Shown piece by piece: positions 11,414-23,152 of a stretch of DNA of 23,152 nt (position 1 is its first letter; every line of letters starts with the position of its first letter). The notes below the pieces were generated by a model. It was not told where the DNA came from. It saw nothing but the letters and a program-made list of their open reading frames with translations, and did no database searches. The position numbers were made by a program, and so were the translations under genes. The stretch covers positions 1 to 23,152 of the IMG/VR virus record IMGVR_UViG_3300036045_000508. One strand, written 5' to 3'. The stretch comes from a virus.

Positions 11414-11899
11414 TCAGCGCTCCTCGCGGAGCGACAGACGGAAGGTCGGCTTGCCCGGCTTCACCGTGCGGGCGGCCTCGAACCCCTCGCGGATCGAAGC
11501 CGGCCAGGCCGCGTACTTCCGCTCCGAGATCCGGAAACTCGTCTCGACATACTCGGCGGGATCGTCGCCGGCGGCACGGATGCGCGCGACCAAGCCGCCC
11601 AGCGCTGCCTGGTCCCATTCGACCTTCTTCGGCAGGTCGGCGATCACCGTGACCTCGCCGTCGTCGAGCCGGACCGTGCCGGAGTCCTTGCCCTCGGCCC
11701 GGCGCGCGGCTGCTGCGCGGTCGCCGTAGCGGAGGGCGATGGCGCCGTTCAACCAGTCGGCCAGATGCCGAGCGGCCTTTGCGGCGTCCTCGGCCTCCTC
11801 CTGCAGGACGGCAAGGAGATCGGCGGGGAGCGCCGCGATCTCGCCGATCGGCATCGTCGGCAGGTCGCCGAGGCGGGGGCGGTTGGCGGGGGCGGTCAC
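11414..11899 (-). CDS. Hypothetical phage protein (161 aa)
   Basis: A GTG at 11899 begins directly after the stop of the preceding gene. The 161-residue product has an acidic helical middle (LLAVLQEEAEDAAKAARHLADWL), a beta hairpin (GTVRLDDGEVTVIADLPKKVEWDQ) and a C-terminal segment typical of a conserved phage protein (YAAWPASIREGFEAARTVKPGK). I cannot name the family or a function. The combination precedes recombination ATPase genes in similar early operons as far as I recall, so a host-takeover or recombination accessory role is possible. No membrane segment, signal or metal cluster. Confidence 0.65.
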   Translation of the reverse strand: MTAPANRPRLGDLPTMPIGEIAALPADLLAVLQEEAEDAAKAARHLADWLNGAIALRYGDRAAAARRAEGKDSGTVRLDDGEVTVIADLPKKVEWDQAALGGLVARIRAAGDDPAEYVETSFRISERKYAAWPASIREGFEAARTVKPGKPTFRLSLREER

Positions 11900-12241
11900 T
11901 TACGCGGCCTCCTCGGTGATGACGTGGGAAGCGAAGTCGGGGAGCGCTCCCTTCCTGCGGGCCCGGGCGACGGCGTAATAGCTGTAGTCCTCGGGCCCGT
12001 GCCGCTGCTGGACGAGGTGGACAAGGCCGCGCTCGGCGAGGTCGTGGGCGCGGGCGGCAAGGAGCCCGAGCGCCGCGCGCGCCGGGCTGTCGGCGAAGCG
12101 GCCGAAGCCGGTGCGGTCGAGCGCGAGGTAGCCGCGGTGATACTCGAGGACGGCGCCGGGCGCGGCCTGCGCCACCCAGGCGCAGAGCTCGATCTCGCTG
12201 ACGCGGGGACGCGGAATCCGGATGACTGGCGCTTTCGCCAT
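11900..12241 (-). CDS. Hypothetical protein, first gene of the early operon
   Basis: A 113-residue basic protein with no recognised family. ISRIPRP-like N-terminal basics (IRIPRPRVSEIELCAWV) are followed by a probable helix-loop with GAVLEYHRGYLALDR, and a winged-helix-like stretch LAARAHDLAERGLVHLVQQRHGPEDYSYYAVARAR. That last segment (helix, then a Gly-containing turn and a strand rich in Tyr) looks like the end of a winged helix, so DNA binding is plausible. It is the first gene after the divergent control region, read from the candidate leftward promoter at 12361-12389. The long leader (about 110 bases) contains a dyad that could be an operator. Confidence 0.62.
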   Translation of the reverse strand: MAKAPVIRIPRPRVSEIELCAWVAQAAPGAVLEYHRGYLALDRTGFGRFADSPARAALGLLAARAHDLAERGLVHLVQQRHGPEDYSYYAVARARRKGALPDFASHVITEEAA

Positions 12242-12336
12242 GGGGGTGTGCTTTCTATTGCGGCTTCGGAACCGTTCAGGTCGCTGCAGGTGCTCCGCGC
12301 GCAGGCGTCTGGCGGTTTCCAGGGGAACTCTTGAGG

Positions 12337-12355
12337 TCGTGACGCGGTGTCATGA
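12337..12355. promoter_or_regulatory. Dyad TCGTGAC-N5-GTCATGA at the presumed leftward transcription start
   Basis: The two 7-base arms pair at six of seven positions around a 5-base centre. The element lies 6 bases downstream of the candidate leftward -10 box, so it would overlap the transcription start of the early operon. It also shares the GTGACNNGGTGTCA core with the iterons at 1462-1751, so one protein could conceivably read both. Function is inference. Confidence 0.4.
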
Positions 12356-12360
12356 GCGGC

Positions 12361-12389
12361 ATCATGCTGCGAATTTTTCGCACCCACAA
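12361..12389 (-). promoter_or_regulatory. Candidate leftward promoter of the early operon
   Basis: Read on the minus strand, TTGTGG (12389-12384) and CATGAT (12366-12361) are separated by exactly 17 bases. The match to -10 is four of six and to -35 three of six, so the call rests on spacing, position ahead of the leftward operon, and the perfect palindrome that fills the spacer. Confidence 0.5.
12368..12382. promoter_or_regulatory. Operator 1: perfect dyad TGCGAA-TTT-TTCGCA
   Basis: A perfect 15-bp inverted repeat with 6-bp arms and an AT-only centre. It occupies the spacer of the candidate leftward promoter, so a bound repressor would block RNA polymerase. The reverse-complementary sequence recurs at 13841-13855 in the matching position of a second promoter. 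The adjacent XRE gene is the obvious candidate for its ligand (inference). Confidence 0.65.
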
Positions 12390-12433
12390 GGGAGAAAATT
12401 GCTGCACTGGAACCTCGCGACAAACTCCGCTAG

Positions 12434-12799
12434 ATGAACGGGGACGCGGGCGACACGGGGCGGCGGGTGGATCACGACGAGAAGCAGGCGCTGGCCCGGT
12501 TCGCCGACATCTCGACCGACGCGACCGCCTGGCGGATGCGCGCTTCGCGGATGGCGCTCGGCCTGAACTCGAAGGAGATGGCCGAGCAGCTCAAGATGCC
12601 GACGACGAGCTACAGCGCCTATGAGAACGGCAAGGCGCACCCGAAGCTCGCGGCCATTCGCTACCTCTACCGCCAGTACGACATCAGCTTCGACTTCATC
12701 CTCTACGGCGATTTCCGGCGCCTGCCCGCCGACCTCCAGCAGCGGATCTTCGACGCCATGCTTTCGATGCAAAGCCCCAAGGGTCCGCCAGAAGCGTAA
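12434..12799 (+). CDS. XRE-family HTH transcriptional regulator, probable lysogeny repressor
   Basis: A 121-residue protein. Residues 31-90 form a Cro/CI-type helix-turn-helix: WRMRASRMALGLNSKEMAEQ, KMPTTSYSAYENGKAHPKLA and AIRYLYRQYDISFDFILYGD. That is five helices ending in the (F/W)xxxGD signature of the family. The 30-residue N-terminal arm is charged, and the C-terminal 25 residues are helical and may dimerise it. There is no peptidase or LexA-like domain, so release would need another signal. It is transcribed away from the early operon, with operator 1 in the shared 192-bp gap, the usual layout of an autoregulated phage repressor. The start has no strong Shine-Dalgarno; an internal ATG at residue 33 would remove the first helix, so the long form is preferred. 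Confidence 0.82.
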   Translation: MNGDAGDTGRRVDHDEKQALARFADISTDATAWRMRASRMALGLNSKEMAEQLKMPTTSYSAYENGKAHPKLAAIRYLYRQYDISFDFILYGDFRRLPADLQQRIFDAMLSMQSPKGPPEA

Positions 12800-12875
12800 G
12801 GCTCACCGGGAGCAGCCGGCGGATCATCAGCATGAGGCGGATCGCGGGACCGGCGTCAATCATGGTGCGGCACTA

Positions 12876-12902
12876 CACTCCCTGGTAATCGCAATGGGAG
12901 TG
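12876..12902. repeat. Inverted repeat CACTCCC-N13-GGGAGTG between the convergent regulators
   Basis: Perfect 7-bp arms around a 13-base loop, 77 bp after the XRE stop and about 105 bp beyond the LuxR stop. It could form a hairpin, but no T-run follows on either strand, so an intrinsic terminator is not well supported. An operator is the alternative. Confidence 0.45.
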
Positions 12903-12928
12903 AAATCTACCTATGGTTGCTTCGGCAA

Positions 12929-12984
12929 GATGGGAAATTCCGAAGATCGCGCGGCGCCGGCCGCCCGCGATGGGCAATCCCGAA
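12929..12984. repeat. Two near-identical 16-bp dyads 40 bp apart
   Basis: GATGGGAAATTCCGAA (12929-12944) and GATGGGCAATCCCGAA (12969-12984) match at 14 of 16 bases. Each has a GGG/CCC-type inner dyad. They lie in the 207-bp gap between the convergent XRE and LuxR genes, where no gene is visible. A spacing of 40 bp is close to four helical turns, which would place two bound proteins on one face (inference). Confidence 0.45.
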
Positions 12985-13006
12985 CCTGCAGGGACGGATC
13001 GAGCGC

Positions 13007-13735
13007 CTAGGCGATGAGGCCGAGGGTGATCGCCTTGGCGACCGCCTGGGTGGTCGATGCGCAATCCAGGCGTCTGCGCGCTCGCGCCAGGCGCTCCTCG
13101 ACGGCCCGGCCCGTGATTCCAAGCGTTTCCCCCACCACCTCGGCCTTCAGTCCGATCGCCACGCCGGCAAGGGCTTCCCGCTCCTGCGGCCGCAGTCGGA
13201 CCTGCTCGCCGGGAAGCTCGACGTGGCAGAAGGCCAAGTGGAAGTCCTGTACGACGTGTCGCACGCCGATCATGTAGCCGCGGCTCAGCGGCTGCTCGAG
13301 GGGTGCGTTGATCTTGAACAGGCCGCGCCGGCCGCGCGGCCCGAAGACGGCTACGTCGAAGCCATGCCACCATCCGTCGCCCAGGGCCTCACGCACGACG
13401 ATGGCCCACCGCTGCCGCGCCGCGCGGACGTCGGGCGGCGAGGCGTCGACAAGGCATGCCGGCTCCCAGGCCCGCGGCTCCGTCAGCTGCATCCGCTCGA
13501 AGAGATCGTAGTCCACCTCGTGCCGCCGGTTGCGGACGTAGTCGTCGGCGAGGGCCCTGATCGGCGGACTGGCGGAGACCTCGATGCGCGCGCCCTCGAC
13601 CAGGGGCACGGCGTGGCGATACCGCGCCTTGGTGATGCCGAGCGCGTGCAGCCGGTCGCGCATCTCGTCGAAGATCGGCGCGAGCGACGGAAGGGTGCGG
13701 TCGATTACCTCGACCGCACGGATGTGCCGGTTCAT
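13007..13735 (-). CDS. LuxR-family regulator with autoinducer-binding-like domain (solo)
   Basis: A 242-residue regulator. The ATG at 13735 follows GAGG by about seven bases; the upstream frame to 13825 has no such signal. Residues about 10-165 are LuxR autoinducer-domain-like: Tyr66, Asp75, Trp90 and the strand GFDVAVFGP (125-133) can be aligned. The Asp-Pro pair of acyl-homoserine-lactone receptors reads Asp-Tyr here. Residues 181-242 are a GerE helix-turn-helix (LRPQEREALAGVAIGLKAEV, GETLGITGRAVEERLARARR) ending in AVAKAITLGLI. No luxI-like synthase is in the window, so it is a LuxR solo within a lysogeny-control region. It could couple element behaviour to cell density or another small molecule. 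Confidence 0.85.
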   Translation of the reverse strand: MNRHIRAVEVIDRTLPSLAPIFDEMRDRLHALGITKARYRHAVPLVEGARIEVSASPPIRALADDYVRNRRHEVDYDLFERMQLTEPRAWEPACLVDASPPDVRAARQRWAIVVREALGDGWWHGFDVAVFGPRGRRGLFKINAPLEQPLSRGYMIGVRHVVQDFHLAFCHVELPGEQVRLRPQEREALAGVAIGLKAEVVGETLGITGRAVEERLARARRRLDCASTTQAVAKAITLGLIA

Positions 13736-13809
13736 AGGAGCCTCTGCGTTAGGATGATTCTCTGCCCTGGCGATCCACTTATGCGGTCGCGAGGTCGGAA
13801 GCGAGAGCC

Positions 13810-13824
13810 TGCCGAAAACTCGCA
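13810..13824. promoter_or_regulatory. Operator 3 (degenerate): TGCCGAAAACTCGCA
   Basis: A 15-bp near match to the TGCGAA-AAA-TTCGCA dyad, with both arms altered. It lies 17 bp upstream of operator 2, upstream of luxR on one side and of the integration operon on the other. It may be a weaker co-operative site; it may also be chance in GC-rich DNA. Confidence 0.3.
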
Positions 13825-13833
13825 CGCTTAGGA

Positions 13834-14016: not shown

Positions 14017-14187
14017 ATGTCGGCCGCTGAGCGCCGCGCCGAGGTCTGCGAGTTGCTCGCCCTCGGGCTGATCCGCCTCCGCGCCCGACAGTCAAGTCAA
14101 CAATCCGACCGTCGTGGAGATAGTTTGCTACACATCCCGCCCCGGCAGAGCGGTCATGCGAACCGTCCACGACGGAGAGTTGCATGA
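14017..14187 (+). CDS. Small conserved protein preceding DUF2924
   Basis: A 56-residue basic protein from the ATG at 14017: MSAAERRAEVCELLALGLIR, then LRARQSSQ and a Ser/Arg-rich tail. A short gene of this kind (AERRAEV.ELLALGL.RLRARKSS) habitually precedes the DUF2924 and recombinase genes in alphaproteobacterial elements, as far as I recall. Its stop overlaps the next start by ATGA, which supports translation. The open frame continues upstream to a TTG at 13834, but that stretch runs through the operator and promoter, so the ATG is chosen; a start between the two cannot be excluded (LHPER just ahead of the ATG looks conserved). Function unknown, perhaps a recombination accessory. Confidence 0.6.
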   Translation: MSAAERRAEVCELLALGLIRLRARQSSQQSDRRGDSLLHIPPRQSGHANRPRRRVA

Positions 14188-14630
14188 CCGACCCGATCCC
14201 CGCCCGCCTCGCCGCGCTGAAGACCATGGCGCTGCCGGACCTGAAGGCCGAGTGGCGCACGCTGTTCGGCGCCGAGCCGCCCGGGTACAACCGCCGCTAC
14301 CTCGAGAGTCGGCTCGCCTATCGCATACAGGAGTTCGCCTTCGGCGGGCTGAAGCCGGAGACGCGGAAGCGCCTCGAGGCGCTCGGGGAGAAGTTCGCCG
14401 ACCGCAACATCACCCGCCGCCGCATCCGCGACGACGTCATGCCGATCGCCGGCACCCGGCTGCTGCGCGAGTGGCAGGGGGTCGAGCACACCGTCACGGT
14501 CCTGACCGAGGGGTACGAGTGGCAGGGCCGGCCGTACCGGTCGCTGTCTGCGGTCGCGAGGGCGATCACCGGCACCCGCTGGAATGGGCTGGTGTTCTGG
14601 GGCTTGAAAAGCCAGAGGGCGGCATCGTGA
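14184..14630 (+). CDS. DUF2924 domain protein, recombinase accessory
   Basis: A 148-residue protein with the DUF2924 pattern: ALPDLKAEWRTLFGAEPPGY, then NRRYLESRLAYRIQEFAFGG, and a C-terminal beta-rich module VTVLTEGYEWQGRPYRSLSA followed by AITGTRWNGLVFWGL. The C-terminal part is the short GYEWxGxxYxSLSxxAxxITGxxWNGxxFFGL module found in many mobile-element proteins and thought to bind DNA. It overlaps the genes on both sides (ATGA before, GTGA after). DUF2924 genes are almost always beside a large serine recombinase, so a role in directing integration or excision is likely but not demonstrated. Confidence 0.85.
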   Translation: MTDPIPARLAALKTMALPDLKAEWRTLFGAEPPGYNRRYLESRLAYRIQEFAFGGLKPETRKRLEALGEKFADRNITRRRIRDDVMPIAGTRLLREWQGVEHTVTVLTEGYEWQGRPYRSLSAVARAITGTRWNGLVFWGLKSQRAAS

Positions 14631-15937
14631 GCCGGGGTCCCGAGGGCAAGCCGGTCCGCAAGCTCCGCTGCGCGGTCTACACCCGGAAGTCGACCGAGGA
14701 GGGCCTCGACAAGGAGTTTAACTCGCTGCAGGCCCAGCGCGAGGCCTGCGAGGCCTACATCGCCAGCCAACGGTCGGAAGGCTGGGCACTAGTCCGCGAC
14801 GCCTACGACGACGGCGGCTTCTCGGGCGGCACCTTGGAGCGCCCCGGGCTGCAGCAGCTCCTCGCCGACATCGAGGAGGGGCTGGTCGACGTCGTCGTGG
14901 TCTACAAGATCGACCGGCTGTCGCGCTCGCTCATGGACTTCTCGAAGCTGGTCGAGGTCTTCGACCGGGCCGGCGTCACCTTCGTCAGCGTGACGCAGAG
15001 CTTCAACACCACAACCTCAATGGGGCGGCTCACGTTGAATATCCTGCTCTCGTTCGCGCAATTCGAGCGCGAGGTCATCGCCGAGCGGGTGCGGGACAAG
15101 ATCCGGGCGTCGCGGCAGAAGGGTATGTGGATGGGTGGCAGCGTGCCGCTCGGCTACGTCGTGCAGGACCGAAAGCTGGTGGTTCACGAGCCCGATGCGA
15201 CGGTGGTGCGGTCGATGTTCGAGCGGTTCCTTCGTGTCGGCTCTGCCACGGTGCTGGCGCAGGAGCTGCGGGCGGAGGGCGTCCTGACCACCAAGGGCCG
15301 GCCGATCGACAAGGGCTACCTCTACAAGTGCCTCAGCAACCGGACCTACCTCGGGCTCGCGATTCACAAGGGCATCGCCTATCCCGGCGAGCACGCCCCG
15401 ATCATCGATGAGGAGCTCTGGGACAACGTCCACGCGATCCTCGCCGAGAATGCCCGCACCCGGTCGGCGCGCACCCGGGCGCAGACGCCGGCGTTACTGA
15501 AGGGGCTGATCTTCGGGCCGACGGGTGCGGCGATGTCGCCGACGCACACTCGGAAGGGCAACCGGCTCTACCGCTACTATGTCAGCCAGGATGTGCTGCA
15601 GCATGGGCGAGATGCCTGTCCGATCGGGCGGGTGCCGGCCGCGGAGATCGAGGCGGCGGTCATCGACCAGCTGCGCACAGTGTTCCGGCAGCCTGAGATC
15701 GTCGTCGGGATGTGGCTCGCGGCGCGGGCCGAGCAGGACAACGTGACCGAGGGCGAGGCGAGGGAGGCGCTCACGCAAATTGACCCGCTGTGGGACGAAC
15801 TGTTCCCGGCCGAGCAGGCGCGGATCGTGCAGCTCCTGGTCGAGCGAGTGGATGTCCATGGAGAGGGGGTCGACGTCCGCTTCCGCATGAACGGCATCGG
15901 CGCGCTTGCCCGCGAAGCCGCGAGGAGGGCCGCATGA
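14627..15937 (+). CDS. Large serine recombinase (resolvase/invertase superfamily integrase)
   Basis: A 436-residue recombinase beginning at a GTG that overlaps the DUF2924 stop. The catalytic domain (about 12-160) starts with LRCAVYTRKSTEEG, placing the nucleophile at Ser22. It continues with FNSLQAQREACEAYIA, DGGFSGGTLERPGLQQLL, VYKIDRLSRSLMDF and LTLNILLSFAQFEREVIAER. A recombinase domain follows (GSVPLGYVVQDRKLVVHEPD to PGEHAPIIDEELWDNVHAIL). A zinc ribbon region comes next: GLIFGPTGAAMSPTHTRKGN has lost the usual first Cys pair, and ACPIGRV keeps one. At 436 residues it is short for the class, without the long coiled coil. It presumably integrates and excises the element; attachment sites are not identifiable from one junction. 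Confidence 0.92.
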   Translation: MSRGPEGKPVRKLRCAVYTRKSTEEGLDKEFNSLQAQREACEAYIASQRSEGWALVRDAYDDGGFSGGTLERPGLQQLLADIEEGLVDVVVVYKIDRLSRSLMDFSKLVEVFDRAGVTFVSVTQSFNTTTSMGRLTLNILLSFAQFEREVIAERVRDKIRASRQKGMWMGGSVPLGYVVQDRKLVVHEPDATVVRSMFERFLRVGSATVLAQELRAEGVLTTKGRPIDKGYLYKCLSNRTYLGLAIHKGIAYPGEHAPIIDEELWDNVHAILAENARTRSARTRAQTPALLKGLIFGPTGAAMSPTHTRKGNRLYRYYVSQDVLQHGRDACPIGRVPAAEIEAAVIDQLRTVFRQPEIVVGMWLAARAEQDNVTEGEAREALTQIDPLWDELFPAEQARIVQLLVERVDVHGEGVDVRFRMNGIGALAREAARRAA

Positions 15938-16344
15938 TGGAAGACGATCGGACGGTGACGGTGCGCATCCCGCTGGTGTTCAAGAAGCATGGCGGACGGA
16001 AGACGGTGATCTTTCCGGATGGTCACGCTTGGGAGCCACCCTCGCCGCTCGTCGACCGCGCTCTGGTCAGGGCGCTGGCGCGGGCCTTCCGATGGCACCG
16101 GCTATTGGACGAAGGTGTATTCGGGACCTTTAACGAGCTGGCGAAGGCCGAGCATGTGAGCCAATCCTACGTGAGCCGGCTGCTACGACTGACGCTGCTC
16201 GCGCCAGCCACGGTCGAAGCGATCCTCGATGGGCGGCAGCAGCCAGCGTTGACACTGGCTCGGCTCTGCGTGCCTTTCCCCGAAGAGTGGTCGCGGCAGA
16301 AGGAGCATTTCGAACGAGACGGCTTGTCGTCTCGGATGACCTGA
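15934..16344 (+). CDS. KorB/ParB-type HTH protein of the recombinase operon
   Basis: A 136-residue protein overlapping the recombinase stop by ATGA. The first 45 residues are a beta-rich segment (TVTVRIPLVFKKHGGRKTVI, then FPDGH). After that comes an HTH of the KorB/ParB kind: TFNELAKAEHVSQSYVSRLL, RLTLLAPATVEAILDGRQQP and LTLARLCVPFPEEWSRQ. The last block is the signature of the small protein that habitually follows such recombinases. It may be the recombination directionality factor or a regulator of the operon; neither is proven. It is the last gene of the integration operon; the 121 bp that follow carry the promoter of the methyltransferase operon. Confidence 0.8.
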   Translation: MMEDDRTVTVRIPLVFKKHGGRKTVIFPDGHAWEPPSPLVDRALVRALARAFRWHRLLDEGVFGTFNELAKAEHVSQSYVSRLLRLTLLAPATVEAILDGRQQPALTLARLCVPFPEEWSRQKEHFERDGLSSRMT

Positions 16345-16465: not shown

Positions 16466-16657
16466 ATGTCGGTAGCCCGCCGACTGAACACGACGATCGA
16501 CGTCCGTCTTGCAGAGCGACTTGATCGGGAGACCGACGGTCGGACACCGCGACTGCCGCGACGGTATGTCGTTGAGCTTGCTCTGCAACGCCTCTTCGAC
16601 GATGTCGATCGCGGCCAACTGGAACTGGATCTGACCCGGCATGACCGACATGAGTGA
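16466..16657 (+). CDS. Ribbon-helix-helix protein leading the methyltransferase operon
   Basis: A 63-residue protein starting at the ATG at 16466, after AAGGGAG at a slightly long distance. The sequence SVARRLNTTIDVRLAERLDR, then PRLPRRYVVELALQRLFDDV, is a strand-helix-helix of the Arc/CopG/MetJ class. The alternating Leu-Thr-Ile-Val at residues 7-13 would form the DNA-contacting ribbon. It overlaps the methyltransferase start by 8 or 17 bp. The tail is acidic (GQLELDLTRHD). By position it is likely to regulate the operon, a role equivalent to the controller proteins of restriction-modification systems, which are usually XRE-type. It could also be an antitoxin-like remnant, though no toxin is adjacent. 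Confidence 0.65.
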   Translation: MSVARRLNTTIDVRLAERLDRETDGRTPRLPRRYVVELALQRLFDDVDRGQLELDLTRHDRHE

Positions 16658-18098
16658 GAAGAGACATAGGGAGCGGTCGGTCATATCGCTTTTCAGCGGC
16701 GCAATGGGTCTCGACCTCGGGCTCGAAGCCGCGGGCCTGGACCTTTCCATGGCCTTGGAACGCTACAAGTTCCCCGTCGCCACCATCCGACACAACCGAC
16801 CCGACCTTCCGCTCATCGACCGTCCGATCGAGGAGGTATCCAGCGACGAGATCCTTGAAGCGGCTGGAGTCGAGCCCGGTGAGGCGTTCGCGGTCGTCGG
16901 TGGACCATCCTGTCAGGTCTTCAGCACGGCGGGTCAGCGCAAGTCCCTCGGCGACCCGCGGAGTACGATGTTTCGCCACTTCGTCCGGGTCATCAGGGAT
17001 ACACGGCCGGCCTTTTTCGTAATGGAGAACGTCCGTGGGCTGCTCTCAGCTGCTGTAAGGCATCGCCCGCTTAGCGAGCGCGGCCCAGGCTACCCGCCGT
17101 TGGGCGACGACGAACAACTCGGATCGGCCTTTGCCGTCGTGGCTAAGACCCTGCGAAAACTGGGATACTACTGCGTATTCGACGTGCTGAACGCGGCCGA
17201 TTTCGGGGTGCCGCAGACCCGGCAGCGCCTCGTCATACTCGGCAGCCGCGACGGGCGTCGGCTCCAGATGCCGCCCGCGACCCATTCTGCGGTCGGTGCC
17301 AACGGCCTTACGCGATGGCGCACATTGGGTGAGGCCCTGGAAGGCCTCAATGACGACCCGCCGGAGCACTATCGGTTCTGCCCTGCCAAAGAACGGTACC
17401 TCAGGCTGGTGCCCGAAGGGGGAAACTGGCGGGATCTGCCGCAAGACCTCCATCGCGAGGCACTTGGCAGCGCATACGACTCCTGGGGTGGCCGCTCCGG
17501 CTTCTTCCGGCGGCTTTCCTTCGACAACCCGAGTCCTGCGCTTACGACGCGTCCGGACAGCAAGGCGACATCACTCTGCCACCCGACGGAACTCCGGCCG
17601 CTCACCGTCGCGGAGTATGCGCGCATTCAGCAGTTCCCCGACAATTGGACCTTCCAGGGTCCGGTGCGGAAGAAGTACGAACAGGTAGGCAACGCCGTCC
17701 CGACCGGACTCGGCGCTGCCGTCGGGCGAGCGCTTCTGGCTGCCGCCCGTAGCCACGCTCGCCTCGAGCGGCTCGGTCGGTTCGAGTCCTTCAACCTTGA
17801 GCTCCTGGCGAAGCTGGCCCGCCGGCCCATAACGATTGTGAACCCGCCGCGTATGCGGAAGGACGATTCTGAGAACTCACTGGCCGATTGGTATGGTGAA
17901 GTGCCGAGGAGGCGCGAGGATGCCTTCGACTATGTGCCCCCCGAACTCCAGGAGCAGTTCCAGCGCTTCCTCAATGGCGGCAGGCGGGGCCGACCAGGCT
18001 CACCGGCAGCCCCTGTGCAACCTGCGAACGCGACGGCGCCGTGCCAGCCGGGCAACACTGATCCTGAAAGAGACGTACGGCTCGCCGCGGCTGAGTAA
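16641..18098 (+). CDS. dcm: DNA (cytosine-5-)-methyltransferase
   Basis: A 485-residue enzyme that transfers a methyl group from S-adenosylmethionine to C5 of cytosine in DNA. Motif I is VISLFSGAMGLDLGLEAAG (14-32). Motif IV is VVGGPSCQVFS with the nucleophile Cys91; the usual PPCQ reads PSCQ, a tolerated change. Motif VI is FFVMENVRG (Glu129), motif VIII is QTRQRLVILGSR, and motifs IX and X are EYARIQQFPDNWTF and GNAVPTGLGAAVGRALL (Asn351). The target recognition domain between VIII and IX (about 207-320) is normal in size. A C-terminal tail of 120 residues has no known domain. An ATG at 16650 is an equally good start. The recognition site cannot be read from sequence. Its 3' end overlaps the glycosylase gene. 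Confidence 0.93.
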   Translation: MTDMSEKRHRERSVISLFSGAMGLDLGLEAAGLDLSMALERYKFPVATIRHNRPDLPLIDRPIEEVSSDEILEAAGVEPGEAFAVVGGPSCQVFSTAGQRKSLGDPRSTMFRHFVRVIRDTRPAFFVMENVRGLLSAAVRHRPLSERGPGYPPLGDDEQLGSAFAVVAKTLRKLGYYCVFDVLNAADFGVPQTRQRLVILGSRDGRRLQMPPATHSAVGANGLTRWRTLGEALEGLNDDPPEHYRFCPAKERYLRLVPEGGNWRDLPQDLHREALGSAYDSWGGRSGFFRRLSFDNPSPALTTRPDSKATSLCHPTELRPLTVAEYARIQQFPDNWTFQGPVRKKYEQVGNAVPTGLGAAVGRALLAAARSHARLERLGRFESFNLELLAKLARRPITIVNPPRMRKDDSENSLADWYGEVPRRREDAFDYVPPELQEQFQRFLNGGRRGRPGSPAAPVQPANATAPCQPGNTDPERDVRLAAAE

Positions 18099-18696
18099 CA
18101 AGGACGACCCGCTTGACGAGCTCGTCTTCATCCTACTGTCTCAGATGACGACGGGGCCTAGCTACGAGCGCGTATACGAACGTCTGAAGGCTGCCCTGCC
18201 GGACTGGCAACTGCTCCTGGAGACCCCTCTCTCGGTCATCTCCGAGCTTATCGCAGACGCAGGCCTTGTGGCCCAACGAACAAACCGCTTGGTCACGATC
18301 GCACAGACACTGGCTGGGGACTTCGGGACGGTCTCGCTCACACTTCTTACCGAAATGTCCGATCAAGACGCTTTCGCGTACCTGACCACTCTGCCCGGCG
18401 TCGGCCCCAAGTCGGCCAAGTGTGTCATGATGTACAGCCTGGGCAGAGAGGTTCTGCCCGTAGACACGCATACTGCCAGGCTCGCATTCCGGCTCGGCCT
18501 CGTAGCAAGCGCAAGTGCCCCGGCCATCGACAAGGAACTAGAACAGATCGTACCGCCGCCCCTGCGTTACGACTTCCACGTGAATGCCGTTGCGCATGGG
18601 CGCGTCGTGTGCCGCGCCGTCAGGCCACGCTGCGGCGAGTGCGCTCTGCGTCCTGCTTGCCCTTCCGGACAGAGAGCCCCAGCACCAGCACGCTGA
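17974..18696 (+). CDS. Endonuclease III-like HhH-GPD DNA glycosylase/AP lyase
   Basis: A 240-residue protein if started at the ATG at 17974, which overlaps the methyltransferase end by 125 bp; a CTG start near 18048 would shorten the overlap. The helix-hairpin-helix is LPGVGPKSAKCVM with catalytic Lys146. The catalytic Asp164 is in LPVDTHTARLAFRLGL. The iron-sulphur cluster is Cys213-x6-Cys220-x2-Cys223-x5-Cys229. All spacings (Lys to Asp 18, Lys to first Cys 67, cluster 6-2-5) equal those of E. coli Nth as I know it. The lysine predicts a bifunctional glycosylase/lyase. Beside a cytosine methyltransferase, it may repair T:G mismatches left by 5mC deamination (the role of Vsr, or of Mig.MthI in the MthTI system), or cut DNA with a wrong methylation state. 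Confidence 0.88.
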   Translation: MAAGGADQAHRQPLCNLRTRRRRASRATLILKETYGSPRLSNKDDPLDELVFILLSQMTTGPSYERVYERLKAALPDWQLLLETPLSVISELIADAGLVAQRTNRLVTIAQTLAGDFGTVSLTLLTEMSDQDAFAYLTTLPGVGPKSAKCVMMYSLGREVLPVDTHTARLAFRLGLVASASAPAIDKELEQIVPPPLRYDFHVNAVAHGRVVCRAVRPRCGECALRPACPSGQRAPAPAR

Positions 18697-19084
18697 CCAC
18701 CGTCCCGACAGTCGCAGGGGCGCTCCAGACATGTCCTGCGGTATCGTGACCGACCCGCAGCCAGTCCAGCCGCGCCCGCCATGCGGCGTCCAAGCCGTTC
18801 ACGTGAGCGACCGCAAGTACCGCGAGTCCTCCGGTCCGTTCCACAGGCAGCAGCCATTCCAGGTAACGGTCTAGGCGCGTCACGCTGCGCATGTCGGACG
18901 GTCCTTCGCTGTGCTTCGCCTCTCCGACGAAGAGCCCTCGCCCGGTGCTCGGGCGACGGAGAACATCCGGGCGTTCGCCGTCAAGGAGTGCGACCTCCAT
19001 CCGGAAGCCCGACATGTCGGCCAGCGTCCGCAGGAGCGACCGCCGCGCCTCGTGCGTCAGGCTGGGGACGCGTTCGGGTCTCAT
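18620..19084 (-). CDS. Small PD-(D/E)XK nuclease-like protein with C-terminal hydrophobic helix
   Basis: A 154-residue protein, ATG at 19084, 21 bp after the helicase stop. After an N-terminal helix (HEARRSLLRTLADMSGFRME), the sequence ALLDGERPDVLRRPSTGRGL, then FVGEAKHSEGPSD, holds the PD-(D/E)XK layout: Asp40 after Pro39, and Glu55-Ala-Lys57 on the next strand. A helix with Arg and Tyr follows (RLDRYLEWLLP), as in restriction-like nucleases. Residues about 122-142 (SAPATVGTVVSVLVLGLSV) are hydrophobic and could be a membrane anchor or buried helix; a basic tail follows. It is last in the leftward operon. Its 3' end overlaps that of the glycosylase gene by 77 bp in convergent orientation. 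Nuclease activity is inferred from motifs only. Confidence 0.7.
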   Translation of the reverse strand: MRPERVPSLTHEARRSLLRTLADMSGFRMEVALLDGERPDVLRRPSTGRGLFVGEAKHSEGPSDMRSVTRLDRYLEWLLPVERTGGLAVLAVAHVNGLDAAWRARLDWLRVGHDTAGHVWSAPATVGTVVSVLVLGLSVRKGKQDAERTRRSVA

Positions 19085-19105
19085 GGGTCCGACGGTCCGG
19101 GTGGT

Positions 19106-20887
19106 TCACAACGCGTCGGCCACGCCAAGCAACGCCGCCGCCTCCCGCACATCGGCTAGGAACGTCTCGCGGGTCAACGGTGTCGTGACCCTGTCCCCGA
19201 GCAGATCCTGCGCGGCGCGCTCCTTCCCGACGAGCCGGTTGTACTCGACCGTCTCGAGCGAACCATCACAGAGCATCACGACATACTCGACGTCGCGCTC
19301 CTGCCCTCGCCGGTGAATTCTGTCCAAGCTCTGCAGGTAGTGGGCCGCCTGGTTCGACAGGGACTCGTAGATCGCCACCCTCGCCCTGTGCAGAGTGAGA
19401 CCGGCGCCGGCCGCCGCAGGGTTGGCGACGAAGACCATCGTTTCGTCGTCTTCTTGGAACCTGCGGACTGCCTCGCGGCGGGCGTCGACATCGTCCACAA
19501 TTCCATCGTACCGGACGGTACCGTAGCGTGCGTAACGCTCGACGATCGCGGTCACGGATGCGGTGTAGAAGGACCAGACAATCACCTTCTCGCGGTCACG
19601 GCCCACGATGCGCTCCAGCAACGAGTCCATCGCCGCCAATTTCGCGGGCGTCTCCCGGTAGCTGGGATCAACGGCCGCCGGGTTGGAGCAGACTTGGAGC
19701 AGCGCCGCCCGCCGCGCCAGGAAGCTGGTACGTTCCCGCGCGAACCGCGCCTCGTCGCTAGCCTCAAGGTCGTGGACCAGATCCTCGAGTGTTGCTCGGT
19801 ACAGGCGGGCCTGCTCCGCGGCCATCGGGAGCAGCACGCGCTGAAATCTCTTGATCGGCAGCTCCGGCAGAACCTCCGCTTTTAGGTGCCTCACGAATAG
19901 GCCCCGCTCCTCGATCGCCTCCTGGATCACGGGCGCCGCCTCAGCGCGGTCATTCGGCACGTCGACGCCATCAAAACAGAAGCCGAAGTCCACGAGGTTG
20001 AACTGCTGGACGAGATCGCCCGGCGCGTTCGGGGCAGGCGTGCCGCAGAGCACATAGGCGCGCCCCGCCCACTCGCGCAGCCGCCGCAGTGCCCGCGTCC
20101 GTTTGGCGTCCATGGACTTAATGAAGAAGGACTCGTCGATGGCGAGCACGGTGCGCCCTGGACGTGCGCGCATGAGTGAGCGAAGCGCTCCTTCCATCGA
20201 AACGGCCGTCTCGAAGTTAGTGACGAACACATCGGCACCGGCCGTCAGCCGCCGTCTCTTCTCCCTCACGGGACCGCTGAGCACCACGGTCCGGTACAGG
20301 TCGCCGCGGAACCGCGTGAGGTCCTTTGGCCACTCCCCGACCATACTCTTCGGCGCCACGATGATCGCCTGATCGGCTTCGTCCCGCTCGACCAAGAGAT
20401 CCAGGGCGAAGATGAAGGTGACGGTTTTGCCGGCCCCCTGTTCGTCGAAGACACACAGCCCGGGGCTGTCCGGCAAGGTCATCGCCGCGACGTTAACTAT
20501 CTGGTGTCGGTCGAGGACGCCTAGGCCGTCACTGTCGGCGATCAGCCGCGCCGCGAAGTCTGGCCCGCCGGTCTTGATCTGCTGCAACCTCGAGAACACG
20601 CTCGGATGATGCGCCGCCACCCCGAGGCGGTTGTCCACGTACCGTTGCGCCTCGGGTGTCCATCGCAACTCAATGTCGTCCTGTAGCAGCCTGAGGGCGG
20701 CAGTCGCCGACGCCGGAACCCGGAGCCCCTCCGTGACGCGGGTCACGGCCTGACCAGCGTCGCCGAGACGGGTCCGGATGAGCTTAAGCAGTGCCAGCGC
20801 TTCGCCCGGCGCCGGAACAAGGAAGAGAGCGTCCAGCGACTCCGGCACGCGCACCTCCACGCGGTGAAGGCGGCAGTCAGGCAGCAT
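19106..20887 (-). CDS. SNF2-type superfamily 2 DNA translocase/helicase
   Basis: A 593-residue motor. Walker A is FDEQGAGKTVTFI (Lys154), motif Ia IIVAPKSMVGEWPKD, motif Ib VFVTNFE, motif II LAIDESFFIK (Asp251-Glu252, DESF instead of DEAH), motif III YVLCGTPAPNAPGDL. In the second lobe, IVWSFYTASVTAIVERYA, VFVANPAAAGAGLTLHRA and HYLQSLDRIHRRGQ give motifs IV to VI. This is the SNF2 pattern, in which ATP hydrolysis moves the protein along double-stranded DNA. The N-terminal 120 residues are unassigned and may bind partners. Its start overlaps the ParB-like stop by 11 bp, so the two are co-translated. Helicases of this group occur in DISARM and other defence systems, which supports a defence role by analogy. 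Confidence 0.9.
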   Translation of the reverse strand: MLPDCRLHRVEVRVPESLDALFLVPAPGEALALLKLIRTRLGDAGQAVTRVTEGLRVPASATAALRLLQDDIELRWTPEAQRYVDNRLGVAAHHPSVFSRLQQIKTGGPDFAARLIADSDGLGVLDRHQIVNVAAMTLPDSPGLCVFDEQGAGKTVTFIFALDLLVERDEADQAIIVAPKSMVGEWPKDLTRFRGDLYRTVVLSGPVREKRRRLTAGADVFVTNFETAVSMEGALRSLMRARPGRTVLAIDESFFIKSMDAKRTRALRRLREWAGRAYVLCGTPAPNAPGDLVQQFNLVDFGFCFDGVDVPNDRAEAAPVIQEAIEERGLFVRHLKAEVLPELPIKRFQRVLLPMAAEQARLYRATLEDLVHDLEASDEARFARERTSFLARRAALLQVCSNPAAVDPSYRETPAKLAAMDSLLERIVGRDREKVIVWSFYTASVTAIVERYARYGTVRYDGIVDDVDARREAVRRFQEDDETMVFVANPAAAGAGLTLHRARVAIYESLSNQAAHYLQSLDRIHRRGQERDVEYVVMLCDGSLETVEYNRLVGKERAAQDLLGDRVTTPLTRETFLADVREAAALLGVADAL

Positions 20888-22466
20888 CGTCGCCTACCTC
20901 GGCAGCAGGCGGCTCCAAATGCCCCTCCACCAGTTTCAGGGCATCCGCTAGTCCGCGAAGGTTCTCCTGGTTGACGGCCCCGGGTTCGTCCGGATCAAAG
21001 ACCTTCACGGGCAAGTTAAGGAACCAATCCGTGAAGGAGCGTATCCGCACATTCACTCCGGTCTGACGTTGTTCGACTCGAGCCGCGCGAGCAACTCCGA
21101 TGGCATCATCGACGTCACCTTGTGCTACCTCAACATCGGCTTCGTTCCGCGCCTTTCGCAAGAGCTCCAGAGCGTCCTCATTCTGGGCGACATACCTCAG
21201 ATCCCTGATCTGCCGCCAGTTCCTGAACTTGTCCTCAAACAGAAGATCGAAGACCAAGTGCTTGAAGCTGTCCTCTTGATTAAGAGACCAGTTCACTCCC
21301 CCGGGGCTCTTACCCTTGTTGAGCTCATCGAAATATTGGAACTTGTCCGACGCCCGATGTTTGGTCGCATACGGATCCTTTGAACGCTCGACGACCTGAT
21401 ATTCTTCGAACTCCTGGGCAATCTTGACCATGTTGATGTAGCGCGAGACCTCATCGACCGAGAGGGCGAACTGGCGTGCTATCTCCTTCCTGATCTCTCT
21501 TAAGCGCGCGGCCGTCGGGTTGGCGCGCGGCTCCAGTGTGACCAGCGTCTCGTACTGTTCGTAGACCTTCTGTGCCTTCACGTACTCGGGCCAGTCCTGT
21601 TTGAAGTCGGGCTCGAAGTTCAGCGAAACGATCACTGCCTCGCGCTCCTGGTCCGTCGCGTGCGCCGTCAGCTGCCACACCTTGATCCATTCCGCTCGCC
21701 TCCTCTCGTCGGCCGAGAACTCCTGGTCCGCGCTGTTCAAGATGTAGTAGCAGGCCGTCACACGTCTGTTGCCGTCGAGCAGGGTGCCGTCTATGTCAAC
21801 TATCGGCGGCTTCCGGACACCGTTCACTGCGATGCTCTTCGCGAGGGCGCGGATAGCGAACTGGTCTGTGCCTTCGATCCCCGGCAGCGCCATCTCCCCC
21901 TGCATTATAGCCAGAAGCTCATCCGCATTTGGGCGCCGCCCGTACTTCTGTTCGAACTGGTTCAGGTGAATGTCGAGCCGCTTGTTCTCGTCCCAAAGGC
22001 GGATGTCACGAGTCCGGACAAAGCCCTCAATGACAGCCACCGGGCGCTCATGGAAGACCGGGCTCGGTCTCACGGCTTGAGGCTGGATCCCGTCAAAGGC
22101 CTGCAACTCCATGCGGCTGACCGAGGCGGGTTCGGTCCCGGGCCTCTCGTCGTCATCGGTGCGGCCCTCCACTGCCGGCTCCCCCTGCGCCGCAAGCCTG
22201 GCCCTCAGCGTCTCCATACGAGCGATGAGCGCTTCAGCGTCTCGATCGAGGATTGCGATGGTCCGCGGGTCGCCGCGGCGCTCGGCACCCGACCGCATCA
22301 CACGAATCACGCGCTCGAGGAGCGCCACGGTCTCACGCTGTTCCAGCGGCTGCACAAGGCCTTCCCGGATGATCTCGCCGACCGTCTCACCGAGGTCGGT
22401 GGCCATCGCCTCGGCGAGGTCGAGGAGTCGCGTTAGGTCCGCCCTGACATCGTTCATGATCACCAT
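20877..22466 (-). CDS. ParB/Srx-fold protein with long N-terminal helical region
   Basis: A 529-residue protein. The ATG at 22466 follows GGAGAAG and overlaps the sigma gene stop; an ATG at 22457 is also possible. Residues 1-110 are helical and coiled-coil-like (LLERVIRVMRSGAERRGDPR, RMETLRARLAAQG). A ParB-type domain follows: FAIRALAKSIAVNGVRKPPI and DGTLLDGNRRVTACYYI (Gly232-Asn-Arg-Arg235), which is the place of the GERR box of ParB CTPases and Srx-like enzymes. Residues about 318-350 look like a ParB HTH (REIRKEIARQFALSVDEVSR). The last 180 residues are unassigned. The protein could be a CTP/ATP-dependent DNA-binding switch or a nuclease. A chromosome-partition role is unlikely because no parA is present. 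Confidence 0.78.
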   Translation of the reverse strand: MVIMNDVRADLTRLLDLAEAMATDLGETVGEIIREGLVQPLEQRETVALLERVIRVMRSGAERRGDPRTIAILDRDAEALIARMETLRARLAAQGEPAVEGRTDDDERPGTEPASVSRMELQAFDGIQPQAVRPSPVFHERPVAVIEGFVRTRDIRLWDENKRLDIHLNQFEQKYGRRPNADELLAIMQGEMALPGIEGTDQFAIRALAKSIAVNGVRKPPIVDIDGTLLDGNRRVTACYYILNSADQEFSADERRRAEWIKVWQLTAHATDQEREAVIVSLNFEPDFKQDWPEYVKAQKVYEQYETLVTLEPRANPTAARLREIRKEIARQFALSVDEVSRYINMVKIAQEFEEYQVVERSKDPYATKHRASDKFQYFDELNKGKSPGGVNWSLNQEDSFKHLVFDLLFEDKFRNWRQIRDLRYVAQNEDALELLRKARNEADVEVAQGDVDDAIGVARAARVEQRQTGVNVRIRSFTDWFLNLPVKVFDPDEPGAVNQENLRGLADALKLVEGHLEPPAAEVGDDAA

Positions 22467-23152
22467 ATCTCTTCTTCTCCTTCCTCGCTCGTCTGTGTCT
22501 CCGGCAGCTCCGCCGGCATCTCTATTCCCGCGCGCTCAGCCTCCCGCCGCAGTCGCTGCAGTCCGCGCGAGACGAGCTTCCGGGCTGATCCTTCGCTGAT
22601 GCCGAGAGCGTCGGCGATCTCGGAGGCCGGCAGATCTGGGAGCCCCTGCGCGGCAGCGTCGATCACCAGTTCCATCACGTCGACGACCTGGCCGTCCCCA
22701 ATTCGTGGCAATAGCTCCCGCGCCAGGCGGATCGCCTCTGCTCGCCGTAAGTCGTCTAACTCTTCACGTTCTCTCCGCGCGCATTCGGTTTCGGCATCTG
22801 GCGCCGCCAGCCCGTCGATCTCCGTCTCATCGCCGGCGCGTACAGCATACTCCGCCCGCCAACGGTCCTGTGCCGTGTTGGCCGCCGTCTTCCACAGCCA
22901 CGCCCCGAGGTTCCGCACGACCCTTCCGTCGGAGAGAGCCGCAAATGCGAAGTCGACGGTCGTCGCCACACAGTCGTCGATCTCGGTGGGTGGTAACGCC
23001 GGCCACTGACGCTGTAGCCGTCTTACCAACCCGTATAGGAACCCGCTGGCCGTCAGGGCCTCGATCATCTGGGTGGGTTCCCCCCTACTAGCAGCCGCTG
23101 TCGCTGCCTGCAGGAGTTCCTCCGGGCTCTTCCGTTCCGGTCCCTCGTCCAC
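22460..23152 (-). CDS. ECF-like RNA polymerase sigma factor (5' end at window edge)
   Basis: At least 230 residues; the last codon of the window is GTG, so it may be the start or the frame may continue outside. A sigma-2-like region (FLYGLVRRLQRQWPALPPTE, then GRVVRNLGAWLWKTAANTAQ and DRWR) and a sigma-4-like region (LPDLPASEIADALGISEGSA and RKLVSRGLQRLRREAE) are in the right order. They are separated by an acidic helix (CARREREELDDLRR), as in extracytoplasmic-function sigma factors. No anti-sigma gene follows; instead the stop overlaps the ParB-like start. A sigma factor leading a helicase and nuclease operon is unusual. It could turn on the operon, or the sigma fold could be reused as a DNA sensor (inference). 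Confidence 0.82.
   Translation of the reverse strand: MDEGPERKSPEELLQAATAAASRGEPTQMIEALTASGFLYGLVRRLQRQWPALPPTEIDDCVATTVDFAFAALSDGRVVRNLGAWLWKTAANTAQDRWRAEYAVRAGDETEIDGLAAPDAETECARREREELDDLRRAEAIRLARELLPRIGDGQVVDVMELVIDAAAQGLPDLPASEIADALGISEGSARKLVSRGLQRLRREAERAGIEMPAELPETQTSEEGEEEIW

What the first reader, a model, noticed from the sequence alone, without database searches (positions are those of the whole stretch)
16466..23152. Candidate new defence or DNA-modification system: 5mC methyltransferase, EndoIII glycosylase, SNF2 motor, ParB-like protein, sigma factor, small nuclease
Seven genes fill two convergent, tightly packed operons beside an integration module. The right operon pairs a C5 methyltransferase with an EndoIII-type glycosylase. 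The left operon couples an ECF-like sigma factor, a ParB-like protein, an SNF2 translocase and a small PD-(D/E)XK protein. Known: SNF2 motors and C5 methyltransferases occur together in DISARM, but DrmA, DrmB and DrmC are absent here. R-M systems do not normally carry ParB-like, sigma or glycosylase parts. Inference: self is marked by 5mC. The ParB-like/SNF2 unit may scan DNA, and the glycosylase or nuclease may cut the unmarked strand.
Basis: partly seen in the sequence, partly recalled or inferred. Interest (0 to 1): 0.85.

Follow-up and report, generated by a model that had tools for sequence, protein, structure and literature searches.

The report
ParB–SNF2 restriction-modification system on mobile element
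A rare but genuine multi-gene bacterial DNA-defence locus, apparently unnamed so far, most likely marks its own DNA with 5-methylcytosine and cuts unmarked DNA with a ParB-like DNA-binding protein, a SNF2 motor and a small nuclease, while its glycosylase repairs mutations that the methylation causes.

Summary
In detail: seven genes (RHH protein, C5 methyltransferase, EndoIII-like glycosylase, small PD-(D/E)XK protein, SNF2 ATPase, ParB-type protein, ECF-like sigma) lie tail-to-tail beside a serine-recombinase module. They form one system. Ten loci found through the ParB protein (Alpha- and Gammaproteobacteria, Actinomycetes, Binatia, Planctomycetota, viral contigs) all carry sigma, ParB, SNF2 and the same methyltransferase; nine carry the small nuclease. 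None of 78 other viral-contig methyltransferase loci has the ParB, sigma or nuclease. Two branches keep the core with other partners: phage-type loci use a different PD-(D/E)XK protein, and rhizobial plasmids pair ParB, nuclease and SNF2 with DndB-like, radical-SAM and GHKL-ATPase proteins. The glycosylase is optional, twice fused to the methyltransferase and twice replaced by Vsr, never with it. So it most likely repairs T:G mismatches from deaminated 5mC and is not the cutter. The ParB protein has a ParB nucleotide-binding domain plus HTH. Best reading: an ATP-dependent restriction-modification system, like CglI/NgoAVII in logic, but with a ParB/SNF2/small-nuclease restriction complex. DISARM, Dpd and Zorya membership fail. 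No phenotype is known; one locus lacks a dedicated nuclease; sigma's role is unexplained.

The parts
16466..16657 (+). small ribbon-helix-helix-type protein (63 aa), probable controller of the MTase operon; overlaps the MTase start by 17 bases
   Evidence: conserved upstream of the MTase in window, L003, L004, L005 by tblastn, and by position and frame in L007 and L011; the L007 copy matches Pfam ParD/RHH 1.1e-7, the window copy itself has no Pfam hit
16641..18098 (+). C5-cytosine DNA methyltransferase (485 aa) with shared C-terminal extension
   Evidence: Pfam DNA_methylase 2.2e-51; catalytic Cys (PSCQ), ENV and QxRxR motifs kept; 51-82% identical in ten loci
17974..18696 (+). EndoIII-like HhH-GPD DNA glycosylase (about 240 aa, start uncertain, overlaps MTase end)
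   Evidence: HhH-GPD 5.9e-11; nearest solved relatives D. radiodurans EndoIII-1 (1.6e-35), also ROS1 and Mig.MthI; Lys, Asp and four Cys kept; fused to MTase in L008 and L038, replaced by Vsr in L006 and L007
18620..19084 (-). small PD-(D/E)XK nuclease (154 aa)
   Evidence: invariant PD...(D/E)xK in 8 homologues; AF2 model pLDDT 84 with alpha-beta-beta-beta-alpha-beta core, PD at start of strand 2 and ExK at end of strand 3; profile match to plasmid relatives E 9.7e-6
19106..20887 (-). SNF2-family ATPase/translocase (593 aa)
   Evidence: Pfam SNF2 8.6e-19 and Helicase_C 1.1e-7; Walker A GAGKT, Walker B DES, motif VI QxxDRxHRRGQ invariant
20877..22466 (-). ParB-type DNA-binding protein: N-terminal helical region, ParB/Srx nucleotide-binding domain (about 146-290), HTH, helical C-terminal region
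   Evidence: AF2 model pLDDT 76; KorB/ParB/Noc/PadC at Z 8-10 over 146-465; invariant DGNRR motif in 10 of 10 aligned rows
22460..23152 (-). ECF-like sigma factor (230 aa), overlaps the ParB start
   Evidence: TIGR02937 2.8e-8, Sigma70_r4 2.5e-6, weak r2; present in all ten loci directly upstream of ParB
14184..16344 (+). carrier element's integration module: DUF2924 protein (14184-14630), serine recombinase (about 14606-15937), HTH accessory (about 15922-16344)
   Evidence: Pfam DUF2924 4.7e-52, Resolvase 4.7e-42, PHROG recombinase-associated 3.4e-37; same module beside L003 and L040

Best explanation
A mobile, ATP-dependent restriction-modification system. Shown from sequence: gene content, recurrence as a unit, intact catalytic motifs, ParB fold with HTH, and exchange of the glycosylase with Vsr. 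Inferred: (1) the C5 methyltransferase marks the host's own DNA; (2) the ParB-type protein binds DNA through its HTH, perhaps gated by a nucleotide, at or near unmethylated target sites; (3) it recruits or loads the SNF2 motor, which translocates along the duplex; (4) the small PD-(D/E)XK protein cuts the DNA; (5) the EndoIII-like glycosylase, like Vsr elsewhere, repairs T:G mismatches left when 5mC deaminates at the marked sites; (6) the RHH protein and the sigma factor control the two operons so that methylation comes before restriction.
For: Sigma, ParB, SNF2 and MTase together in 10 of 10 loci found through ParB, in two convergent, divergent or one codirectional operon. Small nuclease in 9 of 10 (L008 cut by its contig end). 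Matching distance matrices of the four core proteins in 8 loci, r 0.86-0.92. Specificity: 0 of 78 other viral-contig C5-MTase loci carry the ParB, sigma or small nuclease. The restriction trio ParB, PD-(D/E)XK and SNF2 recurs without the MTase, beside a different candidate modification set, on four plasmids, and a phage-type branch (L013, L016, L040) keeps MTase, ParB, SNF2 and another protein with a D...EIK motif. Glycosylase or Vsr in 7 of 10 loci, never both; MTase-glycosylase fusions in L008 and L038. Neighbouring restriction or defence genes in L006 (type I R-M) and L011 (MmeI-like MTase, Schlafen AlbA_2). Mobile context: serine recombinase (window, L003, L040) and tyrosine integrase beside tRNA-Leu (L004).
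Against: No phage, plasmid or methylation phenotype exists. L005/L002 has sigma, ParB, SNF2 and MTase but no small nuclease, so cutting there needs another enzyme or is lost. The nuclease fold search gave no significant hit: best Foldseek E 0.033 to an unrelated protein, FokI only Z 6.3 among unrelated rows. The residues that hydrolyse CTP in ParB (Q, E of GERR) are K and N here, by a weak alignment, so a nucleotide-gated clamp is unproven. Sigma in every locus is unusual for R-M, and no shared promoter motif was found.
Confidence: 0.62

Rival explanations
1. A mobile element's own protection and maintenance kit: the MTase with SNF2 and ParB modifies or shields the element's DNA (anti-restriction, superinfection control), as in phage SNF2-methylase dyads, with no self/non-self restriction by the cell.
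For: Window and L003 lie on a phage-like element with recombinase, and L013/L016 are phage contigs with structural genes. SNF2-MTase dyads protect incoming DNA in phage P1 DarB-type proteins (PMC5512222). SNF2 matches phage helicase family PHROG_62. L005 lacks the nuclease.
Against: A nuclease is kept in 9 of 10 loci and in both sister branches; several loci sit in bacterial defence neighbourhoods; DarB-type partners are adenine MTases in giant virion proteins.
Confidence: 0.17
2. Base-excision restriction: the glycosylase excises a base in unmethylated target sites and is the main effector, as in R.PabI-type systems.
For: Glycosylase is next to or fused with the MTase in five type-I loci and present in L040; catalytic Lys kept in most copies, which allows AP-lyase cleavage; restriction glycosylases exist (PMC10273834).
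Against: Absent in 5 of 10 loci; swapped for Vsr in two; L038 copy lost the catalytic Lys; a dedicated PD-(D/E)XK protein is present; R.PabI is a different fold.
Confidence: 0.07
3. An epigenetic regulatory or partition-like locus: sigma, RHH and ParB-HTH read methylation to control transcription or maintenance of the element, and the nuclease-like protein is not a restriction enzyme.
For: Three predicted DNA-binding regulators in one locus; true ParB-like domain plus HTH; ECF-like sigma in all ten loci.
Against: No ParA partner in the cluster; SNF2 and nuclease motifs fully conserved; the trio is reused beside other candidate modification genes.
Confidence: 0.08

Closest known systems
CglI / NgoAVII ATP-dependent restriction-modification (PMC4267653, PMC5737866)
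   Same: 5mC MTase plus separate nuclease and separate helicase-like ATPase that must act together; NTP-dependent cutting
   Different: There the nuclease R-protein and a DEAD-family N/H-protein form the enzyme; here SNF2 ATPase, a ParB-type protein, a tiny PD-(D/E)XK protein and a sigma factor
SWI2/SNF2-type R-M operons with MORC/GHKL ATPases, cytosine methylases and Vsr (PMC2292703)
   Same: SNF2 ATPase, C5 MTase, RE-fold or other nuclease and Vsr in one operon
   Different: No GHKL ATPase gene in this cluster; ParB-type and sigma proteins instead (the plasmid sister does have a GHKL ATPase)
DISARM (SNF2 DrmD, DrmMII C5 MTase)
   Same: SNF2 motor and C5 MTase together
   Different: No DrmA, DrmB or DrmC; DrmD similarity covers only the motor core
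M.MthTI with Mig.MthI T:G glycosylase; M.EcoKDcm with Vsr (own knowledge)
   Same: 5mC MTase paired with an enzyme that repairs 5mC deamination; Mig is an HhH relative (1kea, 1e-10)
   Different: Most glycosylases here keep the catalytic Lys that Mig lacks; closer to D. radiodurans EndoIII-1
Phage/plasmid SNF2-methylase dyads and ParB DNases of polyvalent proteins (PMC5512222)
   Same: SNF2, ParB/Srx and MTase domains co-occur on mobile elements
   Different: Those are giant multidomain proteins with adenine MTases; here separate genes with C5 MTase and dedicated nuclease
Chromosomal/plasmid ParB, Noc, KorB, PadC
   Same: predicted fold of nucleotide-binding domain plus HTH (Z 8-10)
   Different: GERR motif is DGNRR; extra N- and C-terminal helical regions; no ParA; operon with SNF2 and nuclease

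Membership tests
Restriction-modification system (broad sense) | DNA methyltransferase and cognate restriction nuclease in one locus | tested here: met
   C5 MTase in 10/10 and PD-(D/E)XK motif protein in 9/10 loci; cognate activity is not shown
Restriction-modification system (broad sense) | restriction blocked by the methylation of the same site | not testable with these tools
   needs assay
CglI/NgoAVII type | 5mC MTase, separate nuclease and separate NTPase | tested here: met
   nuclease inferred from motif and predicted topology
CglI/NgoAVII type | DEAD-family N/H-protein and its R-protein partner | tested here: not met
   Pfam and PADLOC scans show a SNF2 ATPase and no phospholipase-D-type nuclease or B3-type domain hit
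DISARM | DrmA, DrmB, DrmC core | tested here: not met
   no hit in six cluster proteins
DISARM | SNF2 DrmD and C5 MTase DrmMII | tested here: inconclusive
   DrmD 5e-16 over motor core only, weaker than ZorD and DpdE; MTase hits many C5 models
Dpd | DpdA and the Dpd modification proteins | tested here: not met
   only the SNF2 core resembles DpdE
Zorya | ZorA/ZorB motor pair | tested here: not met
   only the SNF2 core resembles ZorD
Base-excision restriction (R.PabI type) | R.PabI-family restriction glycosylase | tested here: not met
   glycosylase is HhH-GPD/EndoIII type
5mC deamination repair (Vsr/Mig role) | repair gene linked to a C5 MTase | tested here: met
   adjacent or fused to MTase; mutually exclusive with Vsr in 10 loci
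5mC deamination repair (Vsr/Mig role) | acts on T:G mismatches at the MTase motif | not testable with these tools
   needs enzyme assay
ParB/Noc/KorB CTPase clamps | ParB N-domain plus HTH fold | tested here: met
   Z 8-10 to several ParB-family chains over residues 146-465; model pLDDT 76, Foldseek E not below 1.7e-3
ParB/Noc/KorB CTPase clamps | CTP hydrolysis residues (Q; E of GERR) | tested here: inconclusive
   aligned residues are K219 and N233, weak profile alignment E 0.036
PD-(D/E)XK nucleases | alpha-beta-beta-beta-alpha-beta core with PD and (D/E)xK at strands 2-3 | tested here: met
PD-(D/E)XK nucleases | significant fold match to a known member | tested here: inconclusive
   FokI Z 6.3, not above unrelated folds

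The most novel reading that the evidence does not exclude
A restriction system whose specificity or loading subunit is a ParB-type, nucleotide-gated DNA clamp with its own HTH, handing unmethylated DNA to a SNF2 motor and a minimal PD-(D/E)XK nuclease. The ParB/SNF2/nuclease trio would be a portable restriction module paired with 5mC methylation here and with an unknown radical-SAM/DndB-type modification on rhizobial plasmids.
Probability: 0.33. Interest if true: 0.85.

Novelty: new variant of a known kind. Interest (0 to 1): 0.63.

Why it matters
If true, it adds a new architecture to ATP-dependent restriction-modification: a ParB-type DNA-binding protein, best known from chromosome partition, working with a SNF2 motor and a minimal nuclease. 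The modular partner swapping (5mC here, a probable other modification on plasmids) gives a direct route to find unknown DNA modifications. The exchange of glycosylase and Vsr next to one MTase family supports the idea that 5mC-based systems need their own deamination repair.

Tried and rejected
Search of plasmid and phage records with the ParB protein: no match. Promoter motif shared by sigma and MTase upstream regions: no better than shuffles; it instead showed that the MTase upstream region codes for the RHH protein. Profile comparison of the phage-type X protein with sigma and of Y with the small nuclease: no match. Sequence search of solved structures with the ParB and nuclease profiles: nothing significant. 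DISARM, Dpd, Zorya and R.PabI membership: rejected. Literature: no paper in the open-access library was found to describe this gene set; subscription papers are not held. Housekeeping Nth as the identity of the glycosylase was rejected because of its fusion and adjacency to the MTase and scores far below the nth cut-off. A run that mistook an alignment row for the window gave empty hits and was redone.

Full report
What is there. The window is a 23,152-base IMG/VR record with no larger genome held. Its left two thirds look like a phage-type early or replication region (by inspection of ORFs, not annotated by profile here). A DUF2924 / serine recombinase / HTH accessory module follows at 14184-16344, then the cluster. 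Seven genes are confirmed: 16466-16657 (+) RHH-type, 16641-18098 (+) C5 methyltransferase, about 17974-18696 (+) EndoIII-like glycosylase, and in the other direction 22460-23152 sigma, 20877-22466 ParB-type, 19106-20887 SNF2, 18620-19084 small PD-(D/E)XK protein. Consecutive genes overlap or nearly touch, and the two operons overlap tail to tail by 77 bases.

Recurrence. A scan of genome contigs with two ParB peptides, blind to the other genes, found six bacterial loci: Aquibium (L003), a gammaproteobacterial MAG (L004), Nitrospirillum (L005, also the viral contig L002), a Planctomycetia MAG (L006), an Actinomycetes MAG (L007) and a Binatia MAG (L008). A wider viral scan added L011, and profile searches of about 1,870 whole genomes added L038 and L039, both Planctomycetota. 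With the window these are ten type-I loci. Sigma, ParB, SNF2 and the MTase are in 10 of 10; the small nuclease in 9 of 10 (only its start is seen in L008, at a contig end; absent in L005); the RHH gene in window, L003, L004 and L005 by sequence match, and in L007 and L011 by position and sequence pattern. Gene order varies: convergent in most, MTase divergent in L006, all codirectional in L011. Distances between loci agree among the four core proteins (Mantel r 0.86-0.92, p at most 0.0014, 8 loci), as for genes inherited as a unit.

Control. From viral contigs 80 C5-MTase loci were fetched with the MTase profile. Two are the system itself. The other 78 (about 27-52% identical) carry no ParB, sigma or small nuclease of these families within the DNA held, and only three carry any SNF2 match. 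So the link is specific. The system is rare: two new type-I members in roughly 1,870 genomes, none in the plasmid or phage collections for ParB.

Role of the glycosylase. It is in window, L004 and L011 as a gene beside the MTase, and in L008 and L038 fused to the MTase C-terminus. L006 has Vsr (Pfam 3.6e-17) next to the MTase, L007 has Vsr next to sigma, and L003, L005 and L039 show neither within the DNA held. No locus has both. Vsr is a different fold with one known job, repair of T:G mismatches from deaminated 5mC. Exchange with it is the best evidence that the glycosylase does the same. The L038 copy lost the catalytic lysine, as in Mig-type enzymes, while the others keep it. An unrelated C5-MTase locus (L051) has a Mig-like glycosylase directly downstream. 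The nearest solved relative is D. radiodurans EndoIII-1; ROS1 and Mig.MthI also match. ROS1-like excision of 5mC itself is not excluded.

Role of the small protein. No family library recognises it. All eight aligned homologues keep PDVx(R/H)...(D/E)xK. The AF2 model (pLDDT 84) has the order alpha-beta-beta-beta-alpha-beta-alpha-beta with PD at the start of strand 2 and ExK at the end of strand 3, the canonical PD-(D/E)XK placement. Fold searches were not decisive. In plasmids a protein with the same motif matches it (hhalign E 9.7e-6), also between ParB and SNF2 genes.

Role of the ParB-type protein. The model (pLDDT 76) matches KorB, M. xanthus ParB, Noc and PadC at Z 8-10 over residues 146-465, including the HTH; Foldseek's first fifteen hits are all ParB family, with E from 1.7e-3. 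The GERR motif is DGNRR, invariant in ten rows. It resembles the nucleotide-binding motif of other ParB/Srx proteins, so nucleotide binding is likely and hydrolysis open.

Two sister branches. (a) Plasmids of Bradyrhizobium, Rhizobium, Roseomonas and Mesorhizobium carry ParB-type (E 4.9e-11 to this family), the small PD-(D/E)XK motif protein and SNF2 (about 30-35% identical) beside DndB/DpdB-like, radical-SAM and GHKL-ATPase genes, with a PIN-like gene in three of them and no C5 MTase in the stretches read. (b) Phage contigs L013 and L016 and planctomycete L040 carry C5 MTase, an unknown protein X, ParB, SNF2 and a larger protein Y whose C-terminus has D...EIK; L040 also has the glycosylase and the same kind of recombinase module as the window. 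This suggests that ParB, SNF2 and a PD-(D/E)XK enzyme are the portable restriction core, and that the marking enzymes and sigma or X are branch-specific.

Mobility. The Aquibium locus lies on a related element: recombinase module and several phage-type genes of the window are matched in similar order, and a tRNA-Ser lies just beyond the sigma gene. L004 has a tyrosine integrase and tRNA-Leu beside the MTase. Type I R-M genes flank L006; an MmeI-like MTase and a Schlafen-type gene flank L011.

Comparison. The logic is closest to CglI/NgoAVII (5mC MTase, separate ATPase, separate nuclease; PMC4267653, PMC5737866) and to SNF2-containing R-M operons with Vsr described by Iyer and colleagues (PMC2292703). 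Membership in DISARM, Dpd, Zorya and R.PabI systems fails on defining genes. I found no open-access paper with this set, and PADLOC-DB 2023 has no model for the ParB, sigma or nuclease proteins beyond a weak PDC-M38A hit. DefenseFinder and REBASE could not be queried, so an existing unnamed entry is possible.

Limits. Everything beyond gene content, motifs and folds is inference. The reverse association (MTase of this clade without ParB) was tested only in viral contigs, each with up to 8 kb of flank. L005 without a nuclease and the constant sigma factor are not explained.

Noticed in passing
L018, L019, L020, L021 (plasmids; about 4.3-15 kb of each locus): Conserved block of ParB-type, small PD..GEAK protein, SNF2, DndB/DpdB-like (DGQHR), radical-SAM and GHKL-ATPase genes (PIN-like gene in three) on plasmids of four alphaproteobacterial genera: a candidate system with an unknown DNA modification.
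   Followed up: partly
L040:684-10321: Planctomycete locus with the phage-type branch (MTase, X, ParB, SNF2, Y nuclease, glycosylase) directly beside the same DUF2924 / serine recombinase / HTH module as in the window, so the module may carry such systems repeatedly.
   Followed up: partly
L013:5874-12029 and L016:4410-10600: Phage contigs encode C5 MTase, unknown 275-aa protein, ParB, SNF2 and a protein with D...EIK nuclease motif; the unknown X protein has no family match.
   Followed up: partly
L039:5035-6333 and 11892-13418: This locus has two different C5 MTases around one sigma/ParB/SNF2/nuclease set.
   Followed up: no
L038:11734-13812: MTase-glycosylase fusion in which the glycosylase lost the catalytic lysine (GIGSTTA) and has TDAS in place of VDTH.
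   Followed up: no
L051:9065-9760: Mig-like HhH glycosylase directly downstream of an unrelated C5 MTase on a viral contig.
   Followed up: no
window 13007-13825: LuxR/autoinducer-binding-type regulator (TIGR03541 1.5e-14) on the phage-like element, between its early region and the recombinase module.
   Followed up: no
L005:6158-7627: 489-aa protein with HNH-like N-terminus and a P-loop motif by eye, no Pfam hit, upstream of an IS66-like insertion beside the system.
   Followed up: no
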